NCBI RefSeq assembly: GCF_009193185.1
Contig: NZ_VUKF01000034.1
Coordinates: 1 to 51,955, forward strand
Source of the DNA: Georgenia thermotolerans
Lineage (GTDB): Bacteria; Actinomycetota; Actinomycetes; Actinomycetales; Actinomycetaceae
Direction: 5' to 3'
Length of the DNA: 51,955 nt
The notes under the pieces were generated by a model. That model did not search any database and was not told where the DNA came from. It worked only from the letters and a program-made list of their open reading frames with translations. The translations under genes and the position numbers were made by a program. This document shows positions 804 through 35,150 of this stretch, in pieces (position 1 is the stretch's first letter; each line of letters begins with the position of its first letter).

Positions 804-839
804 TTCCGTGACGTGAAAATCCGTTCGACCCGGCAACGA
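804..839 (+). promoter_or_regulatory. candidate AllR/IclR-type operator upstream of the lactate/glycolate permease
   Basis: TTCCGTGACGTGAAA (804-818) fits TTYC-N7-GRAA, the half-operator shared by seven promoters of this window. It ends 41 bp before the permease start codon. The right half of the 36-bp composite (819-839) is degenerate here, so this is the weakest full match. Confidence 0.55.
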
Positions 840-859
840 CGCCGGCACCAGGGGGGCCC

Positions 860-2674
860 ATGGACAACCTCGCCGTACTCGCATTTTTCGCCCTGCTGCC
901 CATCCTCGTGGTGGGTGCACTTCTTCTCTGGCTGCGTTGGCCGGCCAAGTACGCCATGCCAGTCGGTCTGGCCGTGGTGGTTGCCGTCGCCACCGCCGTG
1001 TGGCAGATGAGCTGGAACACGATCGCGGCCTCGGTGGTCCAAGGCCTGCTCATCGCCGTCGGGCTGTTGTGGATCGTCTTCGGCGCTCTCCTGCTTCTCG
1101 AGACGATCACCAAGAGCGGCGCGCTGCAGTCGATCCGCGCGGGGTTCACCACCATCAGCCCCGACCGCCGCGTCCAGGTCGTCATCGTCGCCTGGCTCTT
1201 CGGTTCCTTCATCGAGGGAGCGGCGGGGTTCGGCACGCCGGCGGCCGTCGTGGCGCCCCTGCTGCTGGCGCTCGGCTTCCCTGCCATGGCGGCGGTCATG
1301 GCAGGCCTGATCATCCAGTCCACACCCGTGAGCTTCGGCGCCGTCGGCACGCCGATGATCACCGGCGTCGGCACCGGCCTCTCGGGCACGGACGGGAGCT
1401 TCGTCCCGAGCGTTCAGGCCCGGGCGGACGCGCTGGACCTGGACCGCGCCGGCTTCATCGCGCACACCGCGACCCAGGTGGCCACCGTCCACGCCCTCGT
1501 CGGCGTCCTCGTGCCGCTGTTCCTCGTGTGCCTCATGACCGGATTCTTCGGGGAACGGCGCAGCTTCCGTGCCGGGCTCGCCGTTGCCCCGTTCGCGCTG
1601 TACGCGGCCCTGGCGATGATCGTTCCCTACCTGGCGGTTGCCTACCTGCTCGGCCCCGAGTTCCCGTCGATGATCGGCGGTTTCGTCGGGCTCGTCGTCG
1701 TCATGTACACGTCCTCCAGGGGCTTCCTCATGCCCAAGGACGTCTGGGACTTTCCGCCACGGGAACGCTGGAGCCACCGCTGGTCCGGTTCGGTCAATCC
1801 CGACGCCGAGATGGCGCCGGGGGCCAGGATGCCGCTCGCCCTCGCCTGGAGCCCCTACGTCATCGTCGCGGCACTGCTGCTCCTGACGCGCAATGTCCCC
1901 GCCCTCAAGACGTTCCTCACGGGCCCGGCGGTCATCAAGGTCAACAACATCTTCGGGTCCGAGATCTCCCAGAACATGGACCTGCTCTACTCCCCCGGCG
2001 CGATCTTCCTCCTGGCGTGCCTGGCCACCTACGTCCTGCACCGGATGACCGGCCGGCAGATCGGCGCCTCGTGGAAGGTGGCGAGCGGTCAGCTCGCGGG
2101 TGCGGCGTTCGCGCTGCTGTGCGCGCTGCCGCTGGTGCGGATCTTCATCAACTCGGGCGGCGCCAACAACGCCGCCGGGCTCGACTCCATGCCCATCACC
2201 CTCGCCGAGGCCGCGGCCAACGTGACCGGCGAGGGCTGGCCGGTCCTGGCTCCGTTCATCGGGGCGCTCGGGGCGTTCGTCGCCGGCTCCAACACGGTCT
2301 CGAACATGATGTTCGCCCTCTTCCAGTACTCCACCGGTGAGGGCATCGGCGCCACCAGCCCCGAGACGGTCGTGGCCATCCAGGCTGTCGGCGGCGCGGC
2401 GGGCAACATGGTGGCGGTGCACAACGTCGTGGCTGCGGCGGCCACCGTGGGTCTGCTCGGGCGGGAGGGCGACCTCATCCGCAAGACGGTCATCCCGATG
2501 ACCTACTACTGCCTGGCGGCCGGCTCCATCGGGTACATGTGGATCTTCGGGATCGGGCTGAACGTGGGAACCATCGTGTTCGTGCTCGTGCTCGCCGCCC
2601 TGGCGGTCACGGCCTGGCAGATCACCACGAAGAGGGACGCCGTCAACCCCGAGCTGGAGCTCGCGAAGATCTGA
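860..2674 (+). CDS. lldP: L-lactate permease family transporter (LctP/LldP/GlcA), probably glycolate/lactate uptake
   Basis: A 604-residue polytopic membrane protein of the lactate permease family, proton symporters for L-lactate, D-lactate and glycolate. Family hallmarks are visible: [14 protein letters not shown] at about residues 117-130 and [10 protein letters not shown] at 157-166, with a related re-entrant repeat near the C-terminus ([22 protein letters not shown]). Length is near the family norm (about 550-600). The start has a G-rich Shine-Dalgarno (AGGGGG) just upstream. Lying convergent to glcDEF and preceded by the island's operator motif, it is more likely the glycolate carrier (GlcA role) than a lactate-only one. 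Substrate is inferred from context. Confidence 0.88.
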
Positions 2675-2680
2675 CGTGAC

Positions 2681-2716
2681 GGTCGGGGCCCTGCCCGCGG
2701 GACGGGGCCCCCGACC
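2681..2716. terminator. bidirectional hairpin between the permease and glcF
   Basis: Arms GGTCGGGGCCC (2681-2691) and GGGCCCC-c-GACC (2705-2716) form an 11-bp stem with one bulge, starting 7 bp after the permease stop. There is no U-tract, as is common in high-GC actinobacteria. Confidence 0.5.
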
Positions 2717-2750
2717 GGCGCCGCTCTCGCGCAGCGGGCGCCAGGCGGAT

Positions 2751-2861: not shown

Positions 2862-2894
2862 CGCCGGTGGTCCGCCTGTGGCTACGTGCCGGTC

Positions 2895-2940
2895 GCCCGT
2901 CAGGCGGGTGCGTGCCCGTCAGGCGGGTGCGTGCCCGTCA
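2895..2940. repeat. 19-bp tandem repeat running into the glcF stop codon
   Basis: The unit GCCCGTCAGGCGGGTGCGT occurs at 2895-2913 and 2914-2932. A third partial copy (2933-2940) includes the glcF stop codon. Each unit contains a small GCCCGTCAGGCGGG-like fold-back. Confidence 0.75.
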
Positions 2941-4578
2941 GCCGCCGCAGCCGCCCGGCTGCCCACAGGCGCAGGTGCCCTTCGCCAGGCTCACCGCGGT
3001 CGCCGCTGCCGCCGCCGCAGCCACCGGGGCGGCGGAGCGGGTCGCCTGCGGCGCCTCCTGCAGCAGGGTGTCGACGCTCTTGCCCAGCAGCGAGGCGTCG
3101 AGGACGCGGACCATGTGCGCCGTCGACATGTGCAGGCCGCGCCGGCCGAGGGCGTCGGTGATCTGCAGCAGGCAGCCCGGGTTGGACGTCACCAGCAGCT
3201 GGGCCCCCGTGGCCGCCACGTTGGCCGCCTTGCGGTCGCCGAGCTCACGCGCCGGCTCCGGCTTGACGAGGTTGTAGATCCCCGCAGAGCCGCAGCACAG
3301 GTCCCCCTCGGCGATCTCCTTGATGGTCAGGCCCGGGATGGCGCCCAGCAGCTGGCGCGGTTGCGACCGGACCCCCTGGGCGTGCGCGAGGTGACAGGCG
3401 TCGTGGTAGGCGACCGTCACCGGCAACGGGTGCCGCGTGGCCACGGGGCCCAGCTCGACGAGGACCTCGGCGATGTCCCGCACCCTGGCGGCGAAGTCGC
3501 GGGCCCGGTCGGCGTACTCGGGGTCGTCGGCGAGCAGGTGGGCGTAGTCCTTCATCGTCGAGCCACAGCCGGCGGAGTTGACGACGATGCGCTCCACCCC
3601 CGCCTCGGTGAACGCGTCGATCAGGGCCCGCGCGTACCGCAGCCCCTCCTCCTCCCGCCCGGCGTGCACCGACAGCGCGCCGCAGCAGCCCTGCGCGGGC
3701 GGGGTGACGACGTCGCAGCCCTCCATGTTGAGGACGCGGACGGTGGCGGCGTTGACGCCGGGGTAGAACTCCCGCTGCACGCAGCCCAGGAGCAGCCCGA
3801 CCGTCATCCGCCGCGGGCCCTTGGCGGGCGAGAGCGGCGGAATGCGGACCTGCCGCTCGATGGGCGGGGCGATGGCCGCCATCGTGGCCAGGCTCGGGGA
3901 GATCTTCTCGAGGACCCGCGTGCGGCGCACCGCCCGGCTGAGCCCGCTGCGCTGGTACAGCGCCAGCGGGCCGCGCATGAGCCGCAGCCGCTCCGGGTGC
4001 GGGAAGAGGGCGAAGATGGCCTCGCGCAGGGCCCGGTCGCCGAGCGACCGGTGCTGCGCCCCGCGCCGCTCGACCTGCTGGCGGGTGGCCTCGATGAGCT
4101 TGTCGTACTGCACGCCCGAGGGGCACGCCGTCACGCACGCCATGCAGCCCAGGCACCGGTCGATGTGCTGCACCAGGGACGGGCTCATCGGCTCGCCCTC
4201 GAGCCCCTCCTTCATGAGGTAGATGCGGCCGCGCGGGGAGTCCATCTCCTCGCCCCACAGGTTGTACGTCGGGCAGGCGGGCAGGCAGAACCCGCAGTGC
4301 ACGCAGTCGTCGATGAGGTCACGCGAGGGCGGGTGGTGGTCGTCGAACGCGGCCATGCCGAGCACGTCGGGCAGGGTGGTGGTCGCCTGTGCGGGCGCCG
4401 CCTCACCCATCTGGCCCTTCGGGCTGGCGACGGCGCCCATGTCGCCCGCGCCGGTGGTGGCCGCGTCCCGCGGCGTGCCCCTCGTGCCCTCGGGGCGCCC
4501 GTCCCCGGCGGAGCGCCCGCCGGTCGCCCCGTTCCCCGAGCGTGCGCCGGTCGACCCGTTCCCGATGTCTCCGCGCAT
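2938..4578 (-). CDS. glcF: glycolate oxidase iron-sulfur subunit GlcF
   Basis: A 546-residue electron-transfer subunit of glycolate oxidase (glycolate to glyoxylate). Two ferredoxin-type 4Fe-4S motifs are seen: C92/C95/C98/C102 and C142/C145/C148/C152. They are followed by two CCG domains (GCCGAL and CCGSAG contexts) typical of GlcF, LutA and GlpC. Start is the ATG in a TGATG overlap with the glcE stop, with Shine-Dalgarno GGGAGGG upstream. Two features are unusual: an N-terminal Gly/Ala-rich extension of about 70 residues before the first cluster, and a short C-terminal tail CACGQPGGCGG with three cysteines. Last gene of aceB-glcDEF. Confidence 0.9.
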   Translation of the reverse strand: MRGDIGNGSTGARSGNGATGGRSAGDGRPEGTRGTPRDAATTGAGDMGAVASPKGQMGEAAPAQATTTLPDVLGMAAFDDHHPPSRDLIDDCVHCGFCLPACPTYNLWGEEMDSPRGRIYLMKEGLEGEPMSPSLVQHIDRCLGCMACVTACPSGVQYDKLIEATRQQVERRGAQHRSLGDRALREAIFALFPHPERLRLMRGPLALYQRSGLSRAVRRTRVLEKISPSLATMAAIAPPIERQVRIPPLSPAKGPRRMTVGLLLGCVQREFYPGVNAATVRVLNMEGCDVVTPPAQGCCGALSVHAGREEEGLRYARALIDAFTEAGVERIVVNSAGCGSTMKDYAHLLADDPEYADRARDFAARVRDIAEVLVELGPVATRHPLPVTVAYHDACHLAHAQGVRSQPRQLLGAIPGLTIKEIAEGDLCCGSAGIYNLVKPEPARELGDRKAANVAATGAQLLVTSNPGCLLQITDALGRRGLHMSTAHMVRVLDASLLGKSVDTLLQEAPQATRSAAPVAAAAAAATAVSLAKGTCACGQPGGCGG

Positions 4579-5834
4579 CAGATCCCTCCCACGAAGCGCC
4601 CGGGCGCGAGGTGGCGTCCGGGATCCAGCCGCTGCTTGACCGCCCGCATGAGCTCCAGCCCGCCCACCGGGCCCCACACGTCGAGCCCCTCCCGCAGCGC
4701 GGCGGGCGCGGAGAGCACGGTGACGGTGCCCTCCCGGGGGCTCGGGGCGGCGGCGCGCAGACCGGCGACGACGCCGGCGAGGGCGGCCGCGTCCGGCGCG
4801 GTGATCCCGGCGTGCAGCACCCCGGCCGCCGTGCCGCGCAGCGCCACGCCGGCCCCGTGCGCCTGCTCGGCCGCGCGCGCCGCGGCCAGCAGGTCCGCCA
4901 CGCCCGTCAGGGTGGCGGTGGCCTTGGCGAGGACGTCGCCGTCGGGCAGGCGGGCCCACCAGGCGGGTTCCTCCCCCACCGTGCCGCCGACCAGCGTCGC
5001 GGCGTCCGCGGCCCGGGCGGCGACGGCGTCGTCGGTGCCCTCGAGCAGGACGGCGAGGGTCGCCTCGTCGGCGCCGGCGGGCCGGTCGATCTCGACCGCG
5101 GCCGGGGCCAGCTGGGAGGCGACCACCGCCCGGGCGCGCTCGGCCACCTCCGCCAGCGGGCCGGTCCAGAGCACGTACGCCCGGGCCGGGCGCATCGGGT
5201 GCAGCCGGAACGCGGCGCGCACGATCACGCCGAGGGTGCCGTAGGCGCCGGTCATGAGCTTGGCCAGGTCGTACCCGGCGACGTTCTTGACGACCTTGCC
5301 GCCCGAGGAGGCGACCGTGCCGTCGGCGAGCACCACGGTGGTGCCCAGGACGAGGTCGCGCAGCGCCAGGCGCTGGAGCCGGCGCACCCCGCTGGCCCCG
5401 GTGGCCAGGGCGCCGCCGACCGTCGACCCGCCCTCCAGGCGCTGGCGCGGGACGTCGGCGACCAGCTCCTGCTCGGCGCGGCCGACGTGGGCCTGCAGGT
5501 CCCGCAGCGCCAGCCCGGCCTCGGCGACGACGACGAGGTCGCCGGACTCGTGCTCGACGAGCCGGTCGAGCCCGCGGGTGTCGAGCAGCAGGTCGACCCG
5601 TTCGGGCGGGCAGCCCCAGCCCAGGGCGGTGCCCGCGCCGCGGGCGACGGTGACCAGCCCCTGCCCGGTGGCGGTGCGCAGCAGGGCCGAGACCGCCTCG
5701 ACCGTGGTCGGGCGGGCCACCACGGCGGCGGGGACGCCGTCGACCGTGTCCTCGGGGCCGGCCTCGCGGACCTCGCCGGCACCGTCGAGGCTACGGACCA
5801 GCGCGCTCAGATCGGGTGCGGTGACCGACGACAT
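4578..5834 (-). CDS. glcE: glycolate oxidase FAD-binding subunit GlcE
   Basis: A 418-residue protein with an N-terminal PCMH-type FAD-binding fold (GGSTVGGALATG and GGKVVKNVAGYDL motifs in the first 200 residues) and a shortened C-terminal oxidase domain, as in GlcE rather than GlcD. It partners GlcD and GlcF in the membrane-associated glycolate oxidase. The ATG start overlaps the glcD stop (TGATG) and follows GGAGGTG, so translation of the three subunits is likely coupled. Confidence 0.88.
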   Translation of the reverse strand: MSSVTAPDLSALVRSLDGAGEVREAGPEDTVDGVPAAVVARPTTVEAVSALLRTATGQGLVTVARGAGTALGWGCPPERVDLLLDTRGLDRLVEHESGDLVVVAEAGLALRDLQAHVGRAEQELVADVPRQRLEGGSTVGGALATGASGVRRLQRLALRDLVLGTTVVLADGTVASSGGKVVKNVAGYDLAKLMTGAYGTLGVIVRAAFRLHPMRPARAYVLWTGPLAEVAERARAVVASQLAPAAVEIDRPAGADEATLAVLLEGTDDAVAARAADAATLVGGTVGEEPAWWARLPDGDVLAKATATLTGVADLLAAARAAEQAHGAGVALRGTAAGVLHAGITAPDAAALAGVVAGLRAAAPSPREGTVTVLSAPAALREGLDVWGPVGGLELMRAVKQRLDPGRHLAPGRFVGGI

Positions 5835-7294
5835 CAGAACACCTCCGCCAGTCCGGCCTCCTGCAGCGGGTGGGCGCCCTGCCGCCGCCCGGGCCGCTCG
5901 CCGCACAGCCGCGGCGTGGGGAAGACCTTGCCCGGGTTGGAGATGTTGTCGGGGTCGAACGCGCACCGGACCGCCTGCATGGTCTCGAGGTCCGCGGCGG
6001 TGAACATCTTGGGCATGTACCGGGCCTTGTCCGCGCCCACGCCGTGCTCGCCGGTGATCGAGCCGCCGTTGGCGATGCACAGCTCGAGGATGCCGCCGGC
6101 GACGTCCTCGGCGCGCTCGGCCGCCCCCTCCTCGGCGTCGTCGAAGAGCACCAGCGGGTGGAGGTTGCCGTCCCCGGCGTGGAAGACGTTGGCCACCCGC
6201 ACGTCCCGCTCGGCGGCGAGGTCGGCGATCTGGCGCAGCACCTGGGGCAGGGCGGTGCGCGGGATGACCCCGTCCTGGACGAGGTAGTCGGGGCTGATCC
6301 GCCCGACGGCGGCGAAGGCGGACTTGCGGCCCTTCCAGATCAGGGCCCGCTCGACGTCGTCGGCCGCGATGCGCGTCTCGAACGCCCCGTTGGCCTCGCA
6401 GTGGCGCAGCACCTCGGCGAGCTCCCCGGCGACGTCCGCCGCGGCGCCGTCGAGCTCGACGACGAGCACCGCGCCTGCGCCGGCGGGGTACCCGCACGCC
6501 ACCGCCTTCTCGGCGGCCTCGATGGCCAGCGCGTCCATCATCTCGATGGCGGCGGGGATGACCCCGGCGGCGATGATCGCCGAGGTCGCCGCCCCGGCGT
6601 CGTCGGTGGAGCGGAACCCGGCGAGCACGGTCTGGACCTCCTGCGGCAGCCGGGTCAGGCGCACGGTCACGGCCGTGACGATCCCGAGCGTGCCCTCGGA
6701 GCCGACCAGGGCGCCGAGCAGGTCGTAGCCGGGCGGGTCGGGCGCCTTGCCCCCGATCTCCACCCGCTCCCCGGCCGGGGTGACGACGTCGAGGCCGACG
6801 ACGTGGTTGGTGGTGAAGCCGTACTTCAGGCAGTGCGCGCCGCCGGAGTTCTCCGCGACGTTGCCGCCGATGGAGCACACGGACTGGCTGGAGGGGTCGG
6901 GGGCGAAGTAGTAGCCGTCGGGCGTCGTGGCGCGGGTGAGCGCGAGGTTGATGACGCCCGGGTCCACGACCGCGCGCTGGTTGGCGGCGTCGATCTCGCG
7001 GATCTGGCGCATCTGCGACATCACGATGAGCACGCCCTCGGCCCGGGGCAGGGCGCCGCCGGACAGGCCGGTGCCCGAGCCGCGCGCCACGAAGGGCACC
7101 TGCCCCGCGGCGCACGCAGCCACCGCCGTGGCGACGTCGTCGGCGTCCCGGGCGAGCACGACGAGCCCGGGCACCACCTTGTACTGGGCGAGACCGTCGC
7201 ACTCGTACGTGCGCAGGCGGTGGCGGTCGGTGATCACCTGCTCGGGCCCCAGGGCCGCGAGCAGGGTCTCGGTGACGCGGGAGAGCGGTGACAC
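5834..7294 (-). CDS. glcD: glycolate oxidase catalytic FAD subunit GlcD
   Basis: A 486-residue FAD-linked oxidase (FAD_binding_4 then FAD-oxidase C domain). Seen: RGSGTGLSGG and CSIGGNVAENSGG in the FAD domain, HAGDGNLHP and TGEHGVG in the C-terminal domain, all typical of GlcD and D-lactate dehydrogenase relatives. I chose the GTG start because GAGGAGG lies 8 bases upstream; the open frame extends further but without a ribosome site. It follows aceB by 64 bp. D-lactate could be an alternative substrate, but the separate glcE and glcF argue for glycolate. Confidence 0.9.
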   Translation of the reverse strand: MSPLSRVTETLLAALGPEQVITDRHRLRTYECDGLAQYKVVPGLVVLARDADDVATAVAACAAGQVPFVARGSGTGLSGGALPRAEGVLIVMSQMRQIREIDAANQRAVVDPGVINLALTRATTPDGYYFAPDPSSQSVCSIGGNVAENSGGAHCLKYGFTTNHVVGLDVVTPAGERVEIGGKAPDPPGYDLLGALVGSEGTLGIVTAVTVRLTRLPQEVQTVLAGFRSTDDAGAATSAIIAAGVIPAAIEMMDALAIEAAEKAVACGYPAGAGAVLVVELDGAAADVAGELAEVLRHCEANGAFETRIAADDVERALIWKGRKSAFAAVGRISPDYLVQDGVIPRTALPQVLRQIADLAAERDVRVANVFHAGDGNLHPLVLFDDAEEGAAERAEDVAGGILELCIANGGSITGEHGVGADKARYMPKMFTAADLETMQAVRCAFDPDNISNPGKVFPTPRLCGERPGRRQGAHPLQEAGLAEVF

Positions 7295-7358
7295 GACGGC
7301 AACCTCCTCGTTGACGACGCCGGCGGCCGGGGCCCGGAGGTCCGGGCCCCGGTTCGTG

Positions 7359-8945
7359 TCAGGACATGCGCTGGTACGCCGGGAGCGTGAGGAAGTCGGC
7401 GTAGTCGTCGGCGACGGCGACCTCGAGGAACGTCTGGCGCGCCTCCTCGTAGTCGGCCGGATCGCCGGGCAGCTTGGCGATCTCCTCGTCGGCGATGCGC
7501 TCGACCAGCTCACGCGTGACCCGGTGGCCCGTGTCAGCAAGCGTGACATCGTTGTGCAGCCACTGCCAGACCTGCGAGCGGGAGATCTCCGCCGTCGCGG
7601 CGTCCTCCATGAGGTTGAAGATCGCCACCGCGCCGAGCCCGCCGAGCCAGGCCTTGAGGTACTGGATGCCGACCGAGACGTTGTTGCGCAGCCCGGCCTC
7701 GGTGACCTCGCCGGGGGTGGAGGCGACGTCGAGGAGCTGGGCGGCCGTGACGTGGACGTCCTCGCGCTTGTTCTCGATCTGGTTGGGCCGGTCGCCGAGG
7801 ACGGAGGTGAAGACCTCCTTGCACACCTCGACCATGCCGGGGTGGGCCACCCAGGAGCCGTCGAAGCCGTCGTTGGCCTCGCGGGTCTTGTCGTCGCGGA
7901 CCTTGGCGAAGGCCACCTCGTTGACGGCCTCGTCCCGGCTGGGGATGAACGCGGCCATGCCGCCGATGGCGTGCGCGCCGCGCTTGTGGCAGGTGCGCAC
8001 GAGCAGCTCGGTGTAGGCGCGCATGAACGGCACGGTCATCGTCACGGAGTTGCGGTCGGGCAGGAGGAAGTCCTTGCCGCGGGTCCGGAAGGACTTGATG
8101 ACGGAGAACATGTAGTCCCAGCGCCCGGCGTTCAGCCCCGAGGAGTGCTCGCGCAGCTCGTAGAGGATCTCCTCCATCTCGAAGGCGGCCGGGTAGGTCT
8201 CGATGAGCACGGTGGCCCGGATGGTGCCGCGCGGGATGCCGAGGAAGTCCTGGGCGAGGACGAACGCGTCGTTCCACAGCCGCGCCTCGAGGTGAGACTC
8301 CATCTTGGGCAGGTAGAAGTACGGGCCCAGGCCCTTCTCGATCTGGCGCAGCCCGGCGGTGGCGAGGTAGAGCGCGAAGTCGACCAGGGAGCCGGAGGTC
8401 TCCTCGCCGTCGACGAGGATGTGCTTCTCGGGCAGGTGCCAGCCGCGGGGGCGCACGATGATCGTGGCCAGCTCCTCGTCCGGCTTGAGCGCGTAGGTCT
8501 TGCCGTTCTCGGCGGTGAAGTCGATGGTGCGGTTGATGGCGTCGAGCAGGTTCAGCTGCCCGCCCACGACCGAGGTCCACTGCGGGGTGTTGGCGTCCTC
8601 GTGGTCGGCCAGCCACGCCTTCGCGCCGGAGTTCAGCGCGTTGATGGTCATCTTCTTGTCGGTGGGGCCGGTGATCTCCACGCGCCGGTCCACCAGGCCG
8701 GGCGCCGGCGGGGCGACCTGCCAGGAGTCGTCCTCCCGGATGTGCGCCGTCTCGGGCAGGAAGTCGAGGGTGCCGCCGTTGGCGAGGTCCTCCACCCGGC
8801 GCCGCCGGGCCTCCAGCAGCTCCAGGCGGCGGCCGTTGAGCTCGCGGTGGAGGCGGGCGATGAGGTCGAGCGCGCGGGGGGTGAGGACCTCCTCGTAGCG
8901 CTCGCCCAGCTCGCCGGTGATGCTGAGCCCGTCCGGAGTCTGCAC
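7359..8945 (-). CDS. aceB: malate synthase A
   Basis: A 528-residue cytosolic enzyme condensing glyoxylate with acetyl-CoA to malate. The family signature [17 protein letters not shown] is present, as are [15 protein letters not shown] and the catalytic region around [12 protein letters not shown]. The GTG start is supported by GAGGGAG six bases upstream. It leads an operon with glcDEF and is preceded by the shared operator, which ties it to disposal of glyoxylate from ureides and glycolate. No isocitrate lyase gene is nearby, consistent with a ureide/glycolate role rather than the glyoxylate shunt. Confidence 0.95.
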
Positions 8946-8960: not shown

Positions 8961-8996
8961 TTTCGTGATGCGGAATTGCAGATCTTCTATGCGAAA
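8961..8996 (-). promoter_or_regulatory. candidate AllR/IclR-type operator of aceB-glcDEF
   Basis: TTTCGTGATGCGGAA (8961-8975) is a full half-operator. The symmetric outer arm GAAA (8993-8996) is kept at exactly the spacing of the 36-bp composite, while the inner right arm (ATCT) is degenerate. The site begins 16 bp upstream of the aceB start codon, a position suited to repression. From 8997 to 9218 I see no further feature. Confidence 0.65.
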
Positions 8997-9819: not shown

Positions 9820-10929
9820 TCACGGCAGCGCGCGCTGCCACCGCTCCTCCGCGAGCGCGCGGCCGGACGCGCTGGCCTCGCCCCACAGCCGCAGCCGGCT
9901 CAGCCCGCCGTCGGGGTAGACGTCGAGACGCACGTGGGTGGCCTCCACGGCCCGCTCGACGAGGAGGCGGTGACGGGTGTCGGGCACCACCGGGCGGCGC
10001 GCGACGATGTCGGTCCACGCGGCGGGGTCGTCGAGGTCGGCGGTGCGGGCGTCGGCCACGGACAGGCGCACCCAGCCCGGCGCGTTGCCCACGTAGTAGC
10101 CGGTGTCGACCTCGACGTGGCGCACGGTGCCGGGCAGGGCGAGCGCGAAGACGGCGAAGTCGTTGCCCTCTCCGCGCCGGCGGGCGTTCTCCCAGCCCTC
10201 CCCCATGTTCCGGGCGCGCCCGGGCAGGATGACGTGGGCGGGCGAGGAGTAGAACGCGTCGGAGGTGCGCTCGAGCCGGCCGCCGTTCTCGGCGGCGACG
10301 AGGTCGACGGTGCCGTCCAGGAAGCGCGGGTCGGCCACGACCTCGCCGTGCACCCGCAGCCGGGCGACGCCGCCGTCGGGGTAGATGGACAGGCGCACGT
10401 GCGTCCAGCAGCGCTCGTCGATGACGGTGTAGTAGTTCTTCGTGTCCCCGGCGCAGTCGGCCTTGGCCACCAGGGTCGTCCACTCGGCGTCGGCCAGCTG
10501 GGCCGCCGAGGGGTAGTCGGGCACGTGGGCGGCCTCGACGGAGACGAAGGGCGGGTAGTTCCCCCGGAACCAGGCGGTGTCGACGACCACGCCGCGGACG
10601 ATCCCCGGCGCGCCCAGGCGCACGATCGCCCAGTCGTGGCCGGGCTCGCGCCGGCGGCGGGTCTCCCAGCCGTCGTACACCTTGCCCTTGTGGCCGAAGT
10701 CGGCGGGGTCGAAGGCCGGCTCGCCGACGGTGATGAGGTTCTCCCGCTGGGCGAACAGCTCGTCGCTGGCCGAGACCACCGAGGCGCCCAGGGCGCGGGA
10801 GGCCAGGTCGGTCAGGGTGGTGAAGGCGGCGCCGGCCGCGGCGGTGCTCGCGGTCGCGCCGTCCGCGGTGGCGGCGGGCGCGCCGGTCGCGCCGGTGGTG
10901 GGGGTGGCCGGGTCTACGTGGGTGCTCAT
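9820..10929 (-). CDS. alc: allantoicase
   Basis: A 369-residue allantoate amidinohydrolase (allantoate to ureidoglycolate plus urea). Two homologous allantoicase repeats are visible, each with a [13 protein letters not shown] / [13 protein letters not shown] strand, a [11 protein letters not shown] / [11 protein letters not shown] strand and a closing [14 protein letters not shown] / [14 protein letters not shown] block. The ATG overlaps the allB stop (ATGA) and follows AGGAG. The first 40 residues are a low-complexity Ala/Thr extension. Because it yields ureidoglycolate, a ureidoglycolate lyase is expected, but none is recognised here. Confidence 0.93.
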
Positions 10930-12299
10930 GCCTCTCCTCGTCGCAGCAGCGTCCCGTGCGGGACGTCGGTGATCGCGCGGCCGCGCAGGAGGGTGCTCCT
11001 GACGACGCCGTTGAGGCGGCGGCCGGCGTAGGGGGTGATCGGGTTCTTGTGGTGCAGGCGGGTGGGGTCGACGACGAACTCCTCCTCGGGCGCGAACACC
11101 GCCAGGTCGGCGTGCCGCCCGACGGCGATGGCGCCCTTGCGCTCCAGGCCGACCAGCGCGGCCGGTCCCGTGGACATCCAGCGCACGACGTCGGCGAGGG
11201 GCACGCCCCGCCGGCGGGCCTCGGACCACACGGCGGCCAGGCCGAGCTGGAGGGAGGCGACCCCGCCCCAGGCCTCGCCGAAGTCGCCGGTGTCCAGGGC
11301 CTTGAGGTCGACGGTGGAGGGCGAGTGGTCGGTGACGACGATGTCGATGGTGCCCTCGGCCAGCCCCTGCCACAGCCGGTCGCGGTTGCCCTCGTCCCGG
11401 ATGGGCGGGCAGCACTTGAAGGCGGTGGCGCCGTCGGGGACCTGCTCGGCGGCGAGGGTGAGGTAGTGCGGGCAGGTCTCGACGGTGAGCCGGACGCCCT
11501 CGGCGCGGGCAGCGGCGATCAGCGGCAGGGCGCCGGCGTCGGAGAGGTGCAGGATGTGCGCCCGGGCGCCGGTGCGGCGGGCGGCCTCGATGACGGTGGC
11601 GATGGCCGCCGCCTCGGCCCCCGCGGGGCGGGAGGCGAGGAAGTCGGCGTACCGGGGTCCGTGGGGATGGGGGGCGCCGGCGACGACCCGGGGGTCCTCG
11701 GCGTGGACGATCATGAGGGCGTCCAGGGCGGCGAGCTCGCGCAGGTCGCGCTCGAGCTCCTCGGGCTCGAGGTGGCCGAACTCCGGCACCCCGGAGTCGA
11801 TGAGGAAGCACTTGAAGCCGAACACGCCGGCCTCGTGCAGGGGCCGGAGCTGCCCGGTGTTGCCGGGGACGGCGCCGCCCCAGAAGCCGACGTCGACGTA
11901 GGCGGCGGCGCGGGCCCGCTCCTGCTTGACCTCGAGCGCGGCGACGTCGGTGGTCGGCGGGACGGAGTTGAGCGGCATGTCGACGATGGTGGTCACCCCG
12001 CCCGCGGCGGCGGCGCGGGTGGCCGAGGCGAACCCCTCCCAGTCGGTGCGGCCGGGCTCGTTGACGTGCACGTGGGAGTCGACCAGGCCGGGCAGGAGCA
12101 CCTCGTCGGGGTCCAGGTCGACGGTGCGCGCGCCCGGAAGGCCCGCCCCGAGGGGGGCGACCTGGGCGATGACGCCGTCGGCGACGGCGACCTCGGCGGG
12201 CGCGAACCCGTCGGGGAGGAGGACGCGCTCGCCGCGCAGGACGAGGTCGTGGCGCGGCCCGGGCTTGGCGGTGGCGTGGGCGGGGGCGGGACTGGTCAT
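10926..12299 (-). CDS. allB: allantoinase
   Basis: A 457-residue amidohydrolase opening allantoin to allantoate. Binuclear metal ligands are visible: HVH (H76, H78), the carboxylated lysine in FKCFL (K163), H199 in IVHAED, H251 in HILHLSD, and D324 in VTDHSPS. ATG start overlaps the glxK stop (ATGA) with AGAGGAC upstream. Dihydropyrimidinase-like relatives exist, but the neighbours allantoicase and gcl support allantoinase. Confidence 0.95.
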
Positions 12300-13517: not shown

Positions 13518-15293
<1,776 letters not shown>

Positions 15294-20352: not shown

Positions 20353-20370
20353 GACGGGCCGTCCTTTCGG

Positions 20371-20417
20371 CTGACAGCGACTTTCGTTATGTGGAAGAAT
20401 ATTTCTGCGCGCCTCGA
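20371..20417. promoter_or_regulatory. iclR/malic enzyme A divergent promoter with candidate operator
   Basis: TTTCGTTATGTGGAA (20382-20396) is a full half-operator, and TTCT follows at the inner right arm position (20403-20406). On the plus strand CTGACA (20371-20376), 18 bp, AAGAAT (20395-20400) forms a promoter for the regulator gene, with the operator in the spacer. This predicts autorepression together with control of the divergent malic enzyme operon. Confidence 0.62.
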
Positions 20418-24312: not shown

Positions 24313-24812
24313 GCGAGCTCCTTCTGCAGGCGGAGGACGGCGATCTCCCGCAGCTGCTCGGCGGCGATGCGCCGCTCGGTCGCGGGGTCGTGGGTGAGGC
24401 GCTCCTCGAGCGCGGCGAGGATCTCCGCGGCGCTGCGGCCGGCGGCGCGGATGAGGAAGACGTGGCCGAACCGCTCCTCGTAGGCGGCGTTGCCCTCGCG
24501 CAGCCGGCGGGCGGTCTCCGGGTCGACGCCGTCGACGGCGGCCTGCTCGCGGCGGGAGTGCGCGGCGTCGGCGTCCGCGCCCTGCGGGCGCTCGCCGATG
24601 CGGGGGTGGCGCGCCAGGGCGGCGTCGACCTCCTCCTCGCTCCAAGGGCGGGCGGCGGCGCGGGCGGCGGTCAGGGCGGTCTCGACGTCGGCGTAGGGTC
24701 GGCCCTGGACGATCTGCTCCGCCCAGCGCGGCACCGCGGCGCAGGCGAGCAGCAGCGCCCGGGCCTCCCGGGCGTCGGCTTCGTTGAGCCGCGCCAGGCC
24801 GGTGAGCGTCAT
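24309..24812 (-). CDS. uraD: 2-oxo-4-hydroxy-4-carboxy-5-ureidoimidazoline decarboxylase
   Basis: A 167-residue all-helical decarboxylase giving S-allantoin. The catalytic histidine lies in RHPRIGERP (H69, with E74), and YEERFGHVFLIRAAGRSAAEIL is the conserved substrate-binding helix. ATG with AAGGAG six bases upstream. First gene of the urate operon, directly below the best-conserved operator of the island. Confidence 0.95.
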   Translation of the reverse strand: MTLTGLARLNEADAREARALLLACAAVPRWAEQIVQGRPYADVETALTAARAAARPWSEEEVDAALARHPRIGERPQGADADAAHSRREQAAVDGVDPETARRLREGNAAYEERFGHVFLIRAAGRSAAEILAALEERLTHDPATERRIAAEQLREIAVLRLQKELA

Positions 24813-24832: not shown

Positions 24833-24868
24833 TTCCATATTGTGGAAGTGGATTTCCGTTCTAGAAAA
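24833..24868 (-). promoter_or_regulatory. candidate AllR/IclR-type operator of the urate operon
   Basis: Full 36-bp composite: TTCCATATTGTGGAA (24833-24847), six bases, TTCCGTTCTAGAAAA (24854-24868). Three of the four arms are perfect. It begins 20 bp upstream of the uraD start codon. Confidence 0.72.
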
Positions 24869-25048: not shown

Positions 25049-26545
25049 TTAGACCTGCTCGGGCGCGGCCACCCGGCCCGTCCCGCCGGCGGGCGCCAGC
25101 GGGACCTCGCGGCCCTGGGCGTCGACGAGGCGGCCGCCCTCGACGCGGTCCCCGTCCTCGAGCGCCTCGAGCAGCTCGGGGCTGACGTAGCGCGTCCCGC
25201 GCGCGACGAAGACCGAGGACTGTGGGGCGTTGCCGGTGCGGAACACGTTGAACACGAGGTTGAGCAGGACCGCCATGATCGCCGCGGAGCTGATGCCGGA
25301 GTGGAAGATCGTCACGAACCACGCCGGGAAGCCGTCGTAGAAGTTCGGGGCGACGATCGGGATCATGCCGAAGGCGAGCGAGCTGGCGACGATGACGAGG
25401 TTCATGTTGCCCTCGTAGTCGACCTTGGCCAGCGTCCGGATCCCGCTGGCGGCCACCGTGCCGAACAGGACGATCCCGGCGCCGCCGAGCACCGGCGTGG
25501 GGACCGCCGCCACCAGCCGGCCGAGGACCGGCAGCAGGCCGAGGACGACCATGATCACGCCGCCGGCGCTGACGACGAAGCGGCTGCGGATCCCGGTGAT
25601 GGCGACCAGGCCGACGTTCTGGGCGAACGCCGTCTGGGTGAAGGAGTTGAACACCGGCGCCACGGCGCTGGAGAGCATGTCCGCCCGCAGGCCGTCGGCG
25701 ATACGGCGGGAGCCGACCTTGCTGCGCACGATCTCGCCGACGGCGAGGATGTCGGCGGTCGTCTCGGTCATCGTCACGAGCACGACGATGGTCATCGAGA
25801 TGATCGCGGCGATCTCGAAGTGCGGCATGCCGAAGGCGAAGGGCGTGGGCAGGGCCACCACCGCGCCGTCGCCGACGCCGGAGAAGTCGGCCATGCCGAG
25901 CGCCGCCGCCACCAGGGTGCCGATGACGATGGCCAGGAGGATCGACAGCCGCGAGACGGCCGCGATGCCGACCTTGCTCAGCACGAGGACGACGAGGAAC
26001 GTCAGGGCGGCCAGCCCGATGTTCGCGGGGCTGCCGTACCCCTCGGCCTCCGGGTTGCCGCCCAGGGTCCAGTTGGCCGCGACCGGCATGAGCGTCAGGC
26101 CGATGGTGGTGATGACGACGCCGGTGACCACCGGCGGGAAGAACCGGATGACCTTGGCGAAGAAGGGGGCGAGCACGAGGCCGATGAGGCCGGCGACGAG
26201 CACGGCGCCGAAGACCGCCGGCAGCCCGCCGCCGCTCGAGAGGATGGCGAGCATGGTCGCCACCCCGGCGAAGGAGACGCCCTGGACGAGCGGCAGCTGG
26301 GAGCCGAAGAACGGCACGCCCCAGCTCTGCAGGATCGTCGCGGCACCGCCCACGAACAGCGCCGAGGCGATGAGGACGGCGATGTCGGGGCCCTGGAGGC
26401 CGGCCGCCGTCCCGACGATGAGCGGCACGGCGATGATCCCGCCGTACATGGTCAGCACGTGCTGGAGCCCGTACACGAAGGAGCGGGCCACGGGCAGCCG
26501 CTCGTCCTCCGGGCGCGCCGCCGTGGTGGTGGTTCCTCTTGCCAT
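25049..26545 (-). CDS. NCS2-family urate/xanthine permease, second paralogue
   Basis: A 498-residue NCS2 symporter closely related to the permease at 21253 (same YGLQHVLTMYGG, SQLPLVQGVSFAG, MTETTADILAVGE and FAQNVGLVAITG blocks) but with a shorter tail and without the Arg/Glu-rich extension. ATG with GAGGAGG seven bases upstream. It is a single-gene unit with its own operator. Whether the two carriers split xanthine and urate cannot be told from sequence. Confidence 0.92.
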   Translation of the reverse strand: MARGTTTTAARPEDERLPVARSFVYGLQHVLTMYGGIIAVPLIVGTAAGLQGPDIAVLIASALFVGGAATILQSWGVPFFGSQLPLVQGVSFAGVATMLAILSSGGGLPAVFGAVLVAGLIGLVLAPFFAKVIRFFPPVVTGVVITTIGLTLMPVAANWTLGGNPEAEGYGSPANIGLAALTFLVVLVLSKVGIAAVSRLSILLAIVIGTLVAAALGMADFSGVGDGAVVALPTPFAFGMPHFEIAAIISMTIVVLVTMTETTADILAVGEIVRSKVGSRRIADGLRADMLSSAVAPVFNSFTQTAFAQNVGLVAITGIRSRFVVSAGGVIMVVLGLLPVLGRLVAAVPTPVLGGAGIVLFGTVAASGIRTLAKVDYEGNMNLVIVASSLAFGMIPIVAPNFYDGFPAWFVTIFHSGISSAAIMAVLLNLVFNVFRTGNAPQSSVFVARGTRYVSPELLEALEDGDRVEGGRLVDAQGREVPLAPAGGTGRVAAPEQV

Positions 26546-26678: not shown

Positions 26679-26714
26679 TTCCGTGATGTGGAACACAACT
26701 TCCGAGGGAGCGGC
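26679..26714 (-). promoter_or_regulatory. candidate AllR/IclR-type operator between the second permease and doxX
   Basis: TTCCGTGATGTGGAA (26679-26693) matches the best consensus exactly. The inner right arm TTCC (26700-26703) is kept and the outer arm is lost. A minus-strand -35-like TTGACG (26719-26714) abuts it. The divergent gene doxX starts about 250 bp away, so control of doxX is uncertain. No other gene was seen in 26546-26963. Confidence 0.65.
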
Positions 26715-27563: not shown

Positions 27564-27603
27564 CCACAGAGGCCCTGGTCCACTCGGACCAGGGCCTCTG
27601 TGG
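27564..27603. terminator. strong terminator after doxX
   Basis: A perfect 18-bp stem CCACAGAGGCCCTGGTCC / GGACCAGGGCCTCTGTGG with loop ACTC, lying between convergent doxX and malic enzyme B. It is probably bidirectional. Confidence 0.88.
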
Positions 27604-33070: not shown

Positions 33071-33155
33071 CCGGCCAGTATCACGGGCCCGCCCGCCCGG
33101 CGGCACGGGATCGGGCTGCCGGGTCCGGCGGCTCCGCAGCCGTTAGGTTGGCGCC

Positions 33156-34445
33156 ATGCCGATCAGATCACGCCTGGGGTACGCCCTCCTCCGGGCGCAG
33201 CGCATCCAGGGCCGCGACGTCTGGCGCGCCATGCGGTGGTACGTGACGGGGACGGTCGCGGTCCAGGCCGCGGCGGCCTCCGCCGTCGTGCTCGTGGACC
33301 GGGTGCGCAAGCGGCGCCAGCCGCCCACCGGAGAGTTCCCGCGCACCGAGCCGGCGACGCTGCCGGTGGCCCACTCGAAGGTGACGACCTACACCTTCGG
33401 CGCGGACCTCTACGCCGACATGCTCGCGGCCATCCGCGGCGCCCGCCGCACCGTCTACTTCGAGACCTTCATCTGGAAGTCCGACGAGGTCGGCAAGCAG
33501 TTCAAGAACGCGCTCCTGGCCGCCGCACGCCGGGGCGTGGAGGTGTACGTCGTCTTCGACAGCTGGGCGAACCTGGTGGTGCCCCCGGGGTTCAAGTCCT
33601 TCCCGAACCTGCCGACGCTGCACGTGCTGCGCTTCCCTCTGTTCCGCCCGGGCCTGCTCACCCTCAACGTGCGCAAGACCGGCCGCGACCACCGCAAGAT
33701 CCTCGTCGTCGACGGCGAGGTGGGCTTCGTCGGCGGGTACAACATCGGCTCGCTGTACGCCACGCAGTGGCGCGACACCCACGTGCGGGTGGAGGGCCCC
33801 AGCGCCTGGGAGCTGGAGAACGCCTTCGTCGACTTCTGGAACGACCACCGCAGGCGCCGCCACCCCGAGATCCCCGACCGCGGCGCGCGGGCGTGGGAGG
33901 CGCGCATCCGCGCCGCGCAGAACGCCCCGAACCGGCTGAGCTTCCCCGTGCGCGGGCTCTACCTCGAGGCGATCGACCGGGCCGAGCACCACATCTACAT
34001 CACCCAGGGGTACTTCATCCCCGACCGGGACATCCTGCGCGGCCTCGTCAGCGCCGCCCACCGCGGGGTCGAGGTCAAGGTGCTCATCCCGGAGGTCTCC
34101 AACCACGTCCTGGCCGACTGGGCCGCCCGCGCCTACTACACCCAGCTGCTCGAGTCCGGGGTGCAGCTGTGGCTGTTCCAGGACGCGATGGTGCACGCCA
34201 AGACGATGACGGTCGACGGGCGCTGGACCACGGTGGGCACGACCAACATCGACCGCATGTCGATGACGGGGAACTTCGAGGTCAACCTCGAGATCTACGA
34301 CGACGACCTGGCCGAGCAGATGGAGAAGATCTTCGCCACCGACCTCACCAACTCCCGCCAGCTCACCCTGCGCGAGTGGGAGTCGCGCGGGCTGCTGTCG
34401 AAGCTCGGCGAGCGGATCCTGCGCCGGCTCGGCCCGCTGCTGTAG
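33156..34445 (+). CDS. phospholipase D-like protein, cardiolipin synthase type
   Basis: A 429-residue protein with one N-terminal hydrophobic segment (about residues 30-47) and two HKD motifs, HRKILVVDGEVGFVGG and HAKTMTVDGRWTTVGTTN, as in bacterial cardiolipin synthases that transfer phosphatidyl groups at the membrane. Length is slightly below the usual ~480 because only one transmembrane segment is present. TAGGTT (33144-33149) lies six bases before the ATG, indicating a leaderless transcript. Confidence 0.88.
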   Translation: MPIRSRLGYALLRAQRIQGRDVWRAMRWYVTGTVAVQAAAASAVVLVDRVRKRRQPPTGEFPRTEPATLPVAHSKVTTYTFGADLYADMLAAIRGARRTVYFETFIWKSDEVGKQFKNALLAAARRGVEVYVVFDSWANLVVPPGFKSFPNLPTLHVLRFPLFRPGLLTLNVRKTGRDHRKILVVDGEVGFVGGYNIGSLYATQWRDTHVRVEGPSAWELENAFVDFWNDHRRRRHPEIPDRGARAWEARIRAAQNAPNRLSFPVRGLYLEAIDRAEHHIYITQGYFIPDRDILRGLVSAAHRGVEVKVLIPEVSNHVLADWAARAYYTQLLESGVQLWLFQDAMVHAKTMTVDGRWTTVGTTNIDRMSMTGNFEVNLEIYDDDLAEQMEKIFATDLTNSRQLTLREWESRGLLSKLGERILRRLGPLL

Positions 34446-34454
34446 CGGCCCGGC

Positions 34455-34967
34455 TCAGACCTCCAGCGCGTAGAACCACATGACCGCCGAGGGGTCCCAG
34501 GAGCCGACGTAGTCGCGGCCCGGGTCGCGCCGGTACCCCACGCGCTCGTAGAGGCGGTGCGGGACGGCCGGGCCGTCCACCGAGAGCACCGACAGCACCA
34601 GCCGCGGGTAGCCCTGCTCCGCCGCCCACTCCTGGGCGGCGCGCAGCAGGACCTCGGCGACGCCGCGGCGCTGGGCGGCGGGGTCGACGGCGAGCATCCG
34701 CACCTCCAGCTCGTCGTCGCGGGCCAGGTCGGCGTAGGCCGTGCCGGCCGCGGCGAGCGTGAGGGTGCCGAGCACCTCCCGCCCGGCGCGGGCGACCAGG
34801 ACGATGGCCTCGGCCGCCCGGCGGGCCACGTCGCGCAGGGCGACGGCGTACCCGTCGTCCTCCTCGGCCATGCCGCCCGCGCGGTAGGCGGCCACGCACA
34901 GCTCCCCGACGCGGTCGAGCTCCTCGGGGCGGACGGTGGAGACGGTGATCGAGGCGGTCTGCGGCAC
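34455..34967 (-). CDS. GNAT-family N-acetyltransferase
   Basis: A 170-residue acetyltransferase with the acetyl-CoA pyrophosphate loop region VRMLAVDPAAQRRGVAEVLL and a C-terminal LYERVGYRR motif. Substrate unknown. I take the GTG start because GATAAT (34979-34974), a near-perfect -10, lies six bases upstream. The longer open frame upstream has actinobacterial intergenic character. Convergent with the PLD gene. Confidence 0.85.
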   Translation of the reverse strand: MPQTASITVSTVRPEELDRVGELCVAAYRAGGMAEEDDGYAVALRDVARRAAEAIVLVARAGREVLGTLTLAAAGTAYADLARDDELEVRMLAVDPAAQRRGVAEVLLRAAQEWAAEQGYPRLVLSVLSVDGPAVPHRLYERVGYRRDPGRDYVGSWDPSAVMWFYALEV

Positions 34968-35114
34968 GGCGTCATTATCGCGCGGCGGACGCCGCGTCCC
35001 GGACGCCGCTGGGGAACCGGGCGGCGCCCCGGGGGCCGCACCGACACCGGCTGCGGAGACCACGCCGACACCCGCACGACGGACCGCGCCGATACCGGCC
35101 GAGGGGCGCCCGAA

Positions 35115-35150
35115 CTCCGGCACGCGGAAAACCTCTTCCGAAGTTGTGGA
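35115..35150 (+). promoter_or_regulatory. candidate AllR/IclR-type operator of xdhABC
   Basis: CTCCGGCACGCGGAA (35115-35129), six bases, TTCCGAAGTTGTGGA (35136-35150): the inner arms GGAA-N6-TTCC are perfect and the outer arms imperfect. A possible -10 TATGGT lies at 35171-35176, giving a 5' leader of about 125 nt. The remaining 34980-35114 is GC-rich non-coding sequence. Confidence 0.62.

What the first reader, a model, noticed from the sequence alone, without database searches (positions are those of the whole stretch)
804..35150. A seven-site regulon with a 36-bp four-arm operator linking purine, glycolate and glyoxylate genes
Seven promoter regions carry TTYC-N7-GRAA (or a one-base variant), and six show further arms at exactly +21 bp, giving TTYC-N7-GGAA-N6-TTCC-N7-GRAA: 804-839 (permease, right side weak), 8961-8996 (aceB-glcDEF), 17123-17158 (hyi to alc), 20382-20417 (iclR/malic enzyme A), 24833-24868 (urate operon), 26679-26714 (second NCS2), 35115-35150 (xdhABC). 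The left half converges on TTYCGTGATGTGGAA. IclR proteins bind as dimers or dimers of dimers, and AllR/IclR sites have GGAA...TTCC cores, which fits the inner arms. An iclR gene lies in the middle with a copy in its own promoter. That one AllR-like repressor controls xanthine dehydrogenase, uricase, both permeases, glycolate oxidase and malic enzyme is inferred.
Basis: partly seen in the sequence, partly recalled or inferred. Interest (0 to 1): 0.82.

Follow-up and report, generated by a model that had tools for sequence, protein, structure and literature searches.

The report
AllR-like repressor's purine–glyoxylate–glycolate regulon
In this actinobacterium (Georgenia) one repressor, probably sensing glyoxylate, most likely switches on together the genes that break down purines and those that use glycolate and glyoxylate, through a conserved palindromic DNA tag; regulator and tag are of a known kind, but the set of genes tied together is wider than I found described.

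Summary
The sites are real. TTYC-N7-GRAA occurs 9 times in the window against 0.28 expected, and 9 of its 32 places in the genome fall in these 52 kb. In 28 loci of named relatives, 89 of 92 such palindromes lie just upstream of the same operons (iclR/malic enzyme, hyi-gcl, uraD, aceB, permeases), none before the internal genes uox, gcl, glxR. The "four-arm" form is overstated: 1 of 7 window sites has all four arms exactly. A second palindrome at +20/+21 is nevertheless real, complete at hyi; tandem palindromes two helical turns apart are a published feature of IclR-family operators. The central IclR protein is the best candidate: the one of 9 Georgenia genomes without it has no model hits and an operator-free aceB. 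A model of 36 sites hit 33 distinct places in the other 8 genomes, all before purine, glyoxylate or glycolate genes, including four genes outside its training set (guanine deaminase, ureidoglycine aminohydrolase, malate synthase G, glycolate/lactate permease). The pocket resembles glyoxylate-binding IclR/BhcR. Best reading: an AllR-like, autoregulated repressor released by glyoxylate. The core reaches Streptomyces-like genomes; xdh control is seen mainly in some Georgenia. New member of a known kind with an extended regulon.

The parts
804..818 (.). operator upstream of the LctP/GlcA-type permease; single palindrome, arms 3 and 4 absent
   Evidence: similar sites before lctP in G005 (L110) and Myceligenerans pegani (L036)
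860..2674 (+). LctP-family lactate/glycolate permease
   Evidence: TIGR00795 361.4 bits, cut-off 341.15
2938..4959 (-). glcF-like glycolate oxidase Fe-S subunit (ORF; true start later)
   Evidence: NF008434 337.2 bits, cut-off 333
5834..7549 (-). glcD-like glycolate oxidase subunit (ORF; true start later). The gene between it and glcF was not identified by any search
   Evidence: NF008408 and TIGR00387, both below cut-off
7359..8945 (-). aceB, malate synthase A, first gene of the presumed aceB-glc operon
   Evidence: TIGR01344 754 bits, cut-off 594.5
8961..8996 (.). operator 15 bp before aceB; left palindrome exact, arm 3 poor, arm 4 GAAA exact
   Evidence: exact palindrome 27-31 bp before the aligned aceB start in 7 of 9 Georgenia genomes, own included
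9820..10926 (-). alc, allantoicase
   Evidence: TIGR02961 389.8 bits, cut-off 277.9
10926..12470 (-). allB, allantoinase (ORF)
   Evidence: TIGR03178 556.5 bits, cut-off 357.85
12296..13513 (-). glycerate kinase
   Evidence: TIGR00045 above cut-off
13518..15293 (-). gcl, glyoxylate carboligase
   Evidence: TIGR01504 1105.4 bits, cut-off 711.2
15311..16192 (-). glxR, tartronate semialdehyde reductase
   Evidence: TIGR01505 366.5 bits, cut-off 340.75
16293..17099 (-). hyi-like gene (xylose-isomerase-like TIM barrel); named hyi by its place beside glxR and gcl
   Evidence: PF01261
17123..17158 (.). full four-arm operator before hyi-glxR-gcl-glxK-allB-alc
   Evidence: both palindromes exact; site upstream of hyi in 20 of 20 relatives' loci; arm 4 exact and arm 3 exact or TTCT in 14 of 14 relatives' hyi sites laid out
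17240..17641 (-). AH_C (allophanate hydrolase C-terminal-like) protein
   Evidence: PF21986
17642..18898 (-). DUF6986 / HpcH-HpaI aldolase-like protein
   Evidence: PF22484 E=1e-173
18895..20353 (-). malic enzyme; start read at 20353 from the sequence
   Evidence: (NF009501 358.1 bits, below its cut-off)
20382..20417 (.). operator shared by divergent malic enzyme and iclR; arms 1-2 exact, arm 3 TTCT, no arm 4
   Evidence: site upstream of iclR in 28 of 28 relatives' loci
20465..21211 (+). IclR-family regulator (AllR-like); ATG at 20465 preferred over the GTG at 20423
   Evidence: PF09339 and PF01614 above cut-offs; pocket residues; start
21253..22920 (-). NCS2 xanthine/urate permease, last gene of the urate operon
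   Evidence: TIGR03173 493.3 bits, cut-off 414.15
22949..23908 (-). urate oxidase
   Evidence: TIGR03383 above cut-off
23974..24309 (-). hydroxyisourate hydrolase
   Evidence: TIGR02962 above cut-off
24309..24812 (-). uraD, OHCU decarboxylase, first gene of the urate operon
   Evidence: TIGR03180 above cut-off
24833..24868 (.). double-palindrome operator before uraD (second palindrome exact at +20; 4/4 and 3/4 arms at +21)
   Evidence: site before uraD in 22 of 23 relatives' loci
25049..26545 (-). second NCS2 permease
   Evidence: TIGR03173 498.4 bits, cut-off 414.15
26679..26703 (.). three-arm operator 134 bp upstream of the second NCS2 gene
   Evidence: same in Georgenia ruanii L009; 1 of 10 NCS2 genes of the relatives' loci has a site
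35115..35139 (.). three-arm operator (first arm CTCC) before xdhABC
   Evidence: one-mismatch sites also in G002, G003, G007; not in the other 4 of 8 Georgenia xdhA genes
35300..36808 (+). xdhA, xanthine dehydrogenase small subunit
   Evidence: TIGR02963 453.8 bits, just under the cut-off of 467
36805..39276 (+). xdhB, molybdopterin subunit (inside ORF 35293-39276; start approximate)
   Evidence: TIGR02965 959.8 bits, cut-off 849.5
38984..40123 (+). xdhC, accessory protein
   Evidence: TIGR02964 267.3 bits, cut-off 161.6

Best explanation
The IclR-family protein at 20465-21211 is an autoregulated, AllR-like repressor. As a dimer it binds one TTYC-N7-GRAA palindrome; as a dimer of dimers it binds two palindromes whose centres lie 20-21 bp (two helical turns) apart. 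The operators lie just before hyi-gcl-allB-alc, uraD-hiuH-uox-permease, aceB-glc, malic enzyme/iclR and a permease and, further upstream, before the second NCS2 gene and xdhABC. Glyoxylate, the shared product of allantoin breakdown and glycolate oxidation, is the most likely inducer and releases the protein. SHOWN: sites, statistics, conservation, co-occurrence of regulator and operators, pocket residues. INFERRED: binding by this protein, repression, glyoxylate as effector, tetramer binding.
For: Enrichment. Spacing control in 28 loci: TTYC-N7-GRAA 92, other spacings from 2 to 15 between 0 and 20 (the 20 at N8). 89 of 92 palindromes lie within 300 bp upstream of target operons; iclR 28 of 28, hyi 20 of 20, uraD 22 of 23; internal genes uox 0 of 23, gcl 0 of 19, glxR 0 of 20. 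Ortholog in 8 of 9 Georgenia genomes, model R2 hits in the same 8; G004 lacks both and its 88%-identical aceB has no site with 0-1 mismatch in 400 bp, while 7 of the other 8 have the exact palindrome 27-31 bp before aceB and 0 of 9 aceB paralogs have a site. The 35 rows of R2 hits are 33 distinct places, all beside purine, glyoxylate or glycolate genes; four genes were not in the training set: lctP in G005, (S)-ureidoglycine aminohydrolase in G003, guanine deaminase in G003, malate synthase G in G008. Pocket: residues binding glyoxylate oxygens in E. coli IclR (G160, A161, D212, S239, S241; PMC11323563 Table 1) correspond to G, V, D, S, S, invariant in 64 aligned sequences.
Against: No binding or expression data. 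R2 was trained partly on sites of G000, G002, G003, G005 and G007 (L009, L010, L013 are G002, G007, G005), so only the hits in G001, G006, G008, most of those in G003 and the lctP hit in G005 are independent of training. The genome has 16 IclR_C genes over the cut-off (17 matches) and TTYC-N7-GRAA is a generic IclR-family skeleton; 3 other places lie within about 1 kb of other iclR genes. G008 has the regulator but its intact aceB lacks the site. xdhA has the site in 4 of 8 Georgenia genomes and in 1 of 7 loci elsewhere. In 29 loci from across the class the exact palindrome lies within 400 bp upstream of iclR in only 12. Relatives are not independent, so counts overstate the number of events. 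NCBIfam cut-offs for E. coli AllR and IclR and for BhcR are not reached.
Confidence: 0.85

Rival explanations
1. Same operators and regulator, but it acts as an activator (or both) at distal sites such as xdh and the second NCS2 gene, as BhcR activates its cluster in Paracoccus although glyoxylate weakens its binding in vitro.
For: Sites at 26679 and 35115 lie about 134 and 150 bp upstream of the genes, unlike the proximal sites; closest NCBIfam model is BhcR; residues of the hydrophobic patch in the window protein (S, T, V, V) are not those of IclR or AllR, as in BhcR, though position 146 is M in 61 of 64 relatives, as in IclR and AllR; BhcR is an activator in vivo (PMC11323563, section read).
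Against: Most sites lie close before the start codon (aceB, hyi, uraD, malic enzyme), a repressor position.
Confidence: 0.15
2. A different IclR-family paralog, or several, bind these sites, since the motif skeleton is shared by the family and the genome holds 16 IclR_C genes over the cut-off.
For: Three other TTYC-N7-GRAA places lie within about 1 kb of other iclR genes.
Against: A site lies upstream of this particular iclR in 28 of 28 relatives' loci; regulator and operators are absent together in G004. G004 was not tested for the other paralogs.
Confidence: 0.04
3. The 36-bp unit is an artefact: only the 15-bp palindrome matters and the second set of arms reflects promoter sequence such as a -35 element.
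For: Arms 3/4 are missing at the window's 804 site, at the iclR sites of Cellulosimicrobium, Occultella and Actinotalea, and downstream of the aceB sites of Myceligenerans.
Against: The peak is at +20/+21 and includes both arms of the second palindrome, complete at hyi; GRAA-N5-TTYC and GRAA-N6-TTYC (22 and 41) stand out among inverse spacings, the next being 8; family precedent for tandem sites 18-22 nt apart.
Confidence: 0.08

Closest known systems
AllR of Streptomyces coelicolor (Navone et al. 2015, Appl Environ Microbiol 81:6649; not held, seen only as a citation and its title in passages of PMC12772271)
   Same: Its title says that it controls the allantoin pathway genes, and the citing paper calls the family member a repressor. 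In unnamed Streptomyces-like genomes (f26/g31) the 61-64% identical protein lies beside allB in 7 of 9 loci, with the exact palindrome within 400 bp before iclR in 7 of 9, before gcl in 9 of 10 and before hyi in 7 of 7 loci where hyi was seen
   Different: Here the sites also precede the urate operon, aceB-glc, permeases and xdh; in the g31 loci no site lies within 300 bp before uraD (0 of 10) and 1 of 3 xdhA loci has one. Whether the 2015 paper lists some of these genes could not be checked
AllR and IclR of Escherichia coli
   Same: Glyoxylate-responsive repressors of allantoin/glyoxylate genes (PMC11323563); same family and mostly the same pocket residues
   Different: Below the NCBIfam AllR and IclR cut-offs; their motifs KTTGGAAWAWTWTTCCAAC and TGGAAATNATTTCCA (PMC8222616 Table 1 passage) have the reverse arm order
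IclR-family tandem operators, class WTTYCRYW3RYGRAAW with 18-22 nt between centres (Suvorova and Gelfand 2021, PMC8222616; abstract, passages and Results read)
   Same: Palindrome consensus, two-turn tandem spacing and three-box sites are described there for many IclR-family groups
   Different: 'Glycolate oxidase' does not occur in its main text; its supplementary regulon tables could not be opened here
BhcR of Paracoccus denitrificans
   Same: Best NCBIfam match (174.5 bits); glyoxylate-type pocket with a changed residue 161 (V here, I in BhcR)
   Different: Below the equivalog cut-off of 350; glycolate oxidase in Paracoccus is under GlcR of the GntR family. BHAC genes were not searched for here

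Membership tests
IclR family of transcription factors | IclR-type HTH plus IclR C-terminal effector domain | tested here: met
   PF09339 60.7 bits (cut-off 22), PF01614 123.9 bits (cut-off 24)
IclR family of transcription factors | Operator of the TTYC...GRAA class, tandem sites 18-22 nt apart (described for many groups) | tested here: met
   that this protein binds them is inferred
AllR (E. coli equivalog, NF007548) | Curated score cut-off 406 bits | tested here: not met
   90.8 bits
BhcR (equivalog NF045644) | Curated score cut-off 350 bits | tested here: not met
   174.5 bits
IclR (equivalog NF008601) | Curated score cut-off 380 bits | tested here: not met
   135.5 bits
AllR of Streptomyces coelicolor | Orthology to that protein | tested here: inconclusive
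   61-64% identical proteins in unnamed g31 genomes, beside allB in 7 of 9 loci; no named Streptomyces protein was at hand and no tree was built
Glyoxylate-responsive IclR regulators | Glyoxylate-binding residues G160, A161, D212, S239, S241 | tested here: met
   G, V, D, S, S in the window protein: 4 of 5 identical; position 161 differs, as it does in BhcR
Glyoxylate-responsive IclR regulators | Release from DNA by glyoxylate | not testable with these tools
   needs purified protein

The most novel reading that the evidence does not exclude
One product-sensing repressor couples two unrelated sources of glyoxylate, purines and glycolate, from uptake, guanine deamination and xanthine oxidation to glycerate, malate and pyruvate, and grades them through operator form: full two-dimer operators at the glyoxylate-salvage and urate operons, one-dimer or three-arm operators at its own gene, permeases and xdh, so that targets are induced in a set order as glyoxylate rises. 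Individual targets (xdh, guanine deaminase, ureidoglycine aminohydrolase, lctP, malate synthase G in place of A) are recruited or lost between species.
Probability: 0.4. Interest if true: 0.55.

Novelty: new member of a known kind. Interest (0 to 1): 0.43.

Why it matters
It gives a clear, testable operator and gene list for a regulator that appears widespread in actinobacteria, indicates that glycolate oxidation and purine breakdown can share one switch through their common product glyoxylate, and puts a gene of unknown function (DUF6986) next to glyoxylate metabolism. Operators with one, one and a half or two palindromes in one genome make a natural set for testing how IclR tetramers use half-sites, and the change of targets between close species shows a regulon being rewired.

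Tried and rejected
Chance repeat of an AT-rich word in GC-rich DNA: rejected. Four exact arms as the rule: rejected for most window sites, kept for hyi and, in a looser form, uraD. General xdh membership: not supported outside part of Georgenia. Two further own-genome places close to the consensus (C41:24844/24861 and C116:110332) were inspected: the four neighbouring ORFs tested match no Pfam family and two of them no NCBIfam family, so I do not count them as targets. The R1 search of the own genome returned 6 places at E<=10, all training sites (the 804 site is not among them), so it shows only that nothing else scores as well. Papers: the S. coelicolor AllR paper could not be read; searches for a published purine-glycolate IclR regulon listed nothing whose title or abstract describes it, in an open-licence library only. 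No structure prediction, tree or Rfam search was run. Alignment A2 leaves out most single-palindrome iclR sites of the Cellulosimicrobium type, the Myceligenerans aceB sites and the lctP sites, so arm conservation in A2 and R2 is biased; the offset test includes such sites, but its 69 sites were picked by me and near-duplicate Cellulosimicrobium loci were dropped.

Full report
WHAT WAS CHECKED. The window is one whole contig (C44) of a 4.64-Mb, 116-contig draft genome, 74% G+C; the nearest named relative of its IclR protein is from Georgenia ruanii (96%). The seven reported 36-mers are present at the stated coordinates. TTYC-N7-GRAA occurs 9 times in the window; shuffles give 0.28 on average and 0 of 100 reach 9. 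In the whole genome it occurs at 32 places, 9 of them in this contig; the reversed pattern gives 15.

ARMS. Of the seven window sites, 6 have an exact left palindrome and 35115 has one mismatch. A third arm TTYC at +21 is exact in 4 of 7 and a fourth arm GRAA in 2 of 7; all four arms in that register occur only at 17123, and 24833 has an exact second palindrome at +20. The chance of 4 of 7 third arms at the window frequency of TTYC is about 3e-10, assuming independence. So the tandem is real but not uniform: two palindromes at hyi and uraD; three arms at malic enzyme/iclR, the second NCS2 gene and xdh; one palindrome at lctP; a poor third arm with an exact fourth at aceB.

GENES. Profile searches give: an LctP/GlcA-type permease; glcF- and glcD-like genes and malate synthase A; allantoicase, allantoinase, glycerate kinase, glyoxylate carboligase, tartronate semialdehyde reductase and a hyi-like gene; an AH_C protein, a DUF6986 protein and a malic enzyme; the IclR regulator; two NCS2 permeases, urate oxidase, hydroxyisourate hydrolase, OHCU decarboxylase; xdhABC. 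GlcE was not identified. The ATG at 20465 of iclR follows a GAGGGAGG stretch, and the malic enzyme probably starts at 20353, so the shared operator 20382-20417 lies between them.

FOOTPRINTING IN NAMED RELATIVES. A search with the IclR protein found 28 loci. All 28 have TTYC-N7-GRAA upstream of iclR. Over the 28 loci (474 kb) there are 92 exact palindromes; other spacings from 2 to 15 give 0 to 20, the 20 being N8. 89 of the 92 lie within 300 bp upstream of iclR (with malic enzyme in 23, citE in 1), hyi, uraD, aceB, an NCS2 gene or lctP; the other three are L020:20224, L029:20532 and L036:2334. By gene: iclR 28 of 28, hyi 20 of 20, uraD 22 of 23, malic enzyme 22 of 24, aceB 7 of 20, NCS2 1 of 10, lctP 1 of 1, citE 1 of 22; internal genes uox 0 of 23, gcl 0 of 19, glxR 0 of 20; xdhA 0 of 1. 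Twelve of the 13 aceB misses are loci (Cellulosimicrobium type) where aceB sits behind the malic enzyme and so may use its operator; the other is L032. In an offset test on 69 sites that I selected, 37 have a second palindrome with at least 3 of 4 matches in both arms at +21 and 18 at +20; the next highest is 8, at -21.

TEST OF THE REGULATOR. Among 9 Georgenia genomes the ortholog is present in 8 and the model R2 (36 sites, A2) finds places in the same 8 at E<=2; G004 has neither. R2's training sites come partly from these genomes: L009, L010 and L013 are G002, G007 and G005, and L040 and L043 are G007 and G003. G004 keeps an aceB 88% identical to the window's, without a site of 0-1 mismatch in 400 bp upstream, whereas 7 of the other 8 genomes have the exact palindrome 27-31 bp before the aligned aceB start. 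The exception is G008, which has the regulator but no such site at its intact aceB. Nine more distant aceB paralogs, one per genome, have none. xdhA carries a one-mismatch site with TTCC as third arm in 4 of 8 Georgenia genomes that have a full-length XdhA match.

WHERE THE MODEL HITS FALL. The 35 rows are 33 distinct places (two are listed on both strands). They lie before hyi, uraD, iclR, aceB, the second NCS2 gene, xdhA and lctP and before three genes that are not in the window's set: (S)-ureidoglycine aminohydrolase in G003 (NF008376 460.5 bits, cut-off 338), guanine deaminase in G003 (NF006679 479.8 bits, cut-off 351; TIGR02967 385, cut-off 375.4; E of the site 0.65) and malate synthase G in G008 (NF002825 586.9 bits, cut-off 565, on the part of the gene inside the locus; the four-arm site lies about 240 bp before it). 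These three and lctP were not among the training sites, and all are pathway enzymes or a transporter of the same substrates. G008 thus has the operator on a different malate synthase, which may explain why its aceB lacks it (inference).

WIDER DISTRIBUTION. In 296 genomes of the class, own included, 97 have a match at 1e-40 or better. Of 29 returned loci other than the window's, 12 have the exact palindrome within 400 bp upstream of iclR. Over 21 uraD loci 5 have it, all five of the window's own order; over 7 xdhA loci outside Georgenia, 1. So the core looks old, and the urate, glycolate and xanthine parts vary by lineage.

MECHANISM. The protein has the IclR HTH and effector domains. By alignment to the E. 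coli IclR effector domain, the residues that contact glyoxylate oxygens there (G160, A161, D212, S239, S241, listed in PMC11323563 Table 1) are G, V, D, S, S, invariant in 64 aligned sequences, some from the same genome twice. [quoted passage not shown] in the relatives 146 is M in 61 of 64. That favours glyoxylate as effector, as in IclR, AllR and BhcR, but does not prove it. Operators close before start codons (aceB, hyi, uraD, malic enzyme) suggest repression; the distal sites at xdh and the second NCS2 gene leave room for another mode.

KNOWN OR NEW. Suvorova and Gelfand (PMC8222616; abstract, passages and Results read) describe the WTTYCRYW3RYGRAAW class, tandem sites 18-22 nt apart in 94 groups, and three-box sites in 32 groups. 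This is the same architecture, so the operator is not a new kind. A Streptomyces AllR controlling allantoin genes is published; I saw only its citation. My searches listed no paper whose title or abstract links xanthine, urate and glycolate genes under such a regulator, but the library holds open-licence papers only. I therefore file it as a new member of a known kind with an extended regulon.

Noticed in passing
window 17642-18898 (-) and 17240-17641 (-): A DUF6986 (HpcH/HpaI aldolase-like) gene sits between the malic enzyme and hyi operons; 22 of the 28 named-relative loci have a homolog that could be counted, with an AH_C protein beside it in some. A candidate unknown enzyme of glyoxylate metabolism.
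   Followed up: partly
L108:1518 and L215:1500 (genome G003): Operator-like sites just before (S)-ureidoglycine aminohydrolase and guanine deaminase, extending the predicted regulon in that species.
   Followed up: yes
L084:1500-1535 (genome G008): A full four-arm site about 240 bp before a malate synthase G gene, beside an iclR copy with two stop codons and malic-enzyme fragments; an aceB fragment with sites lies near the other iclR (L214).
   Followed up: partly
own genome C28:195526, C30:9886, C50:84391: TTYC-N7-GRAA places within about 1 kb of other iclR-family genes; two of them appear to lie on the 3' side of the gene. They may be sites of other IclR regulators; not tested.
   Followed up: no
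own genome C41:24844 and 24861 (L003): Two exact palindromes 17 bp apart; the three neighbouring ORFs tested had no Pfam match.
   Followed up: partly
L020 (record QAPD01000007.1, titled Sphaerisporangium cinnabarinum ATCC 31213): Gene order and operators are nearly the same as in the Cellulosimicrobium loci, so the record may be mislabelled or contaminated.
   Followed up: no
window 26948-27583 (-): ORF of 211 aa with no Pfam or NCBIfam match, with a homolog beside the malic enzyme in several Georgenia loci.
   Followed up: partly
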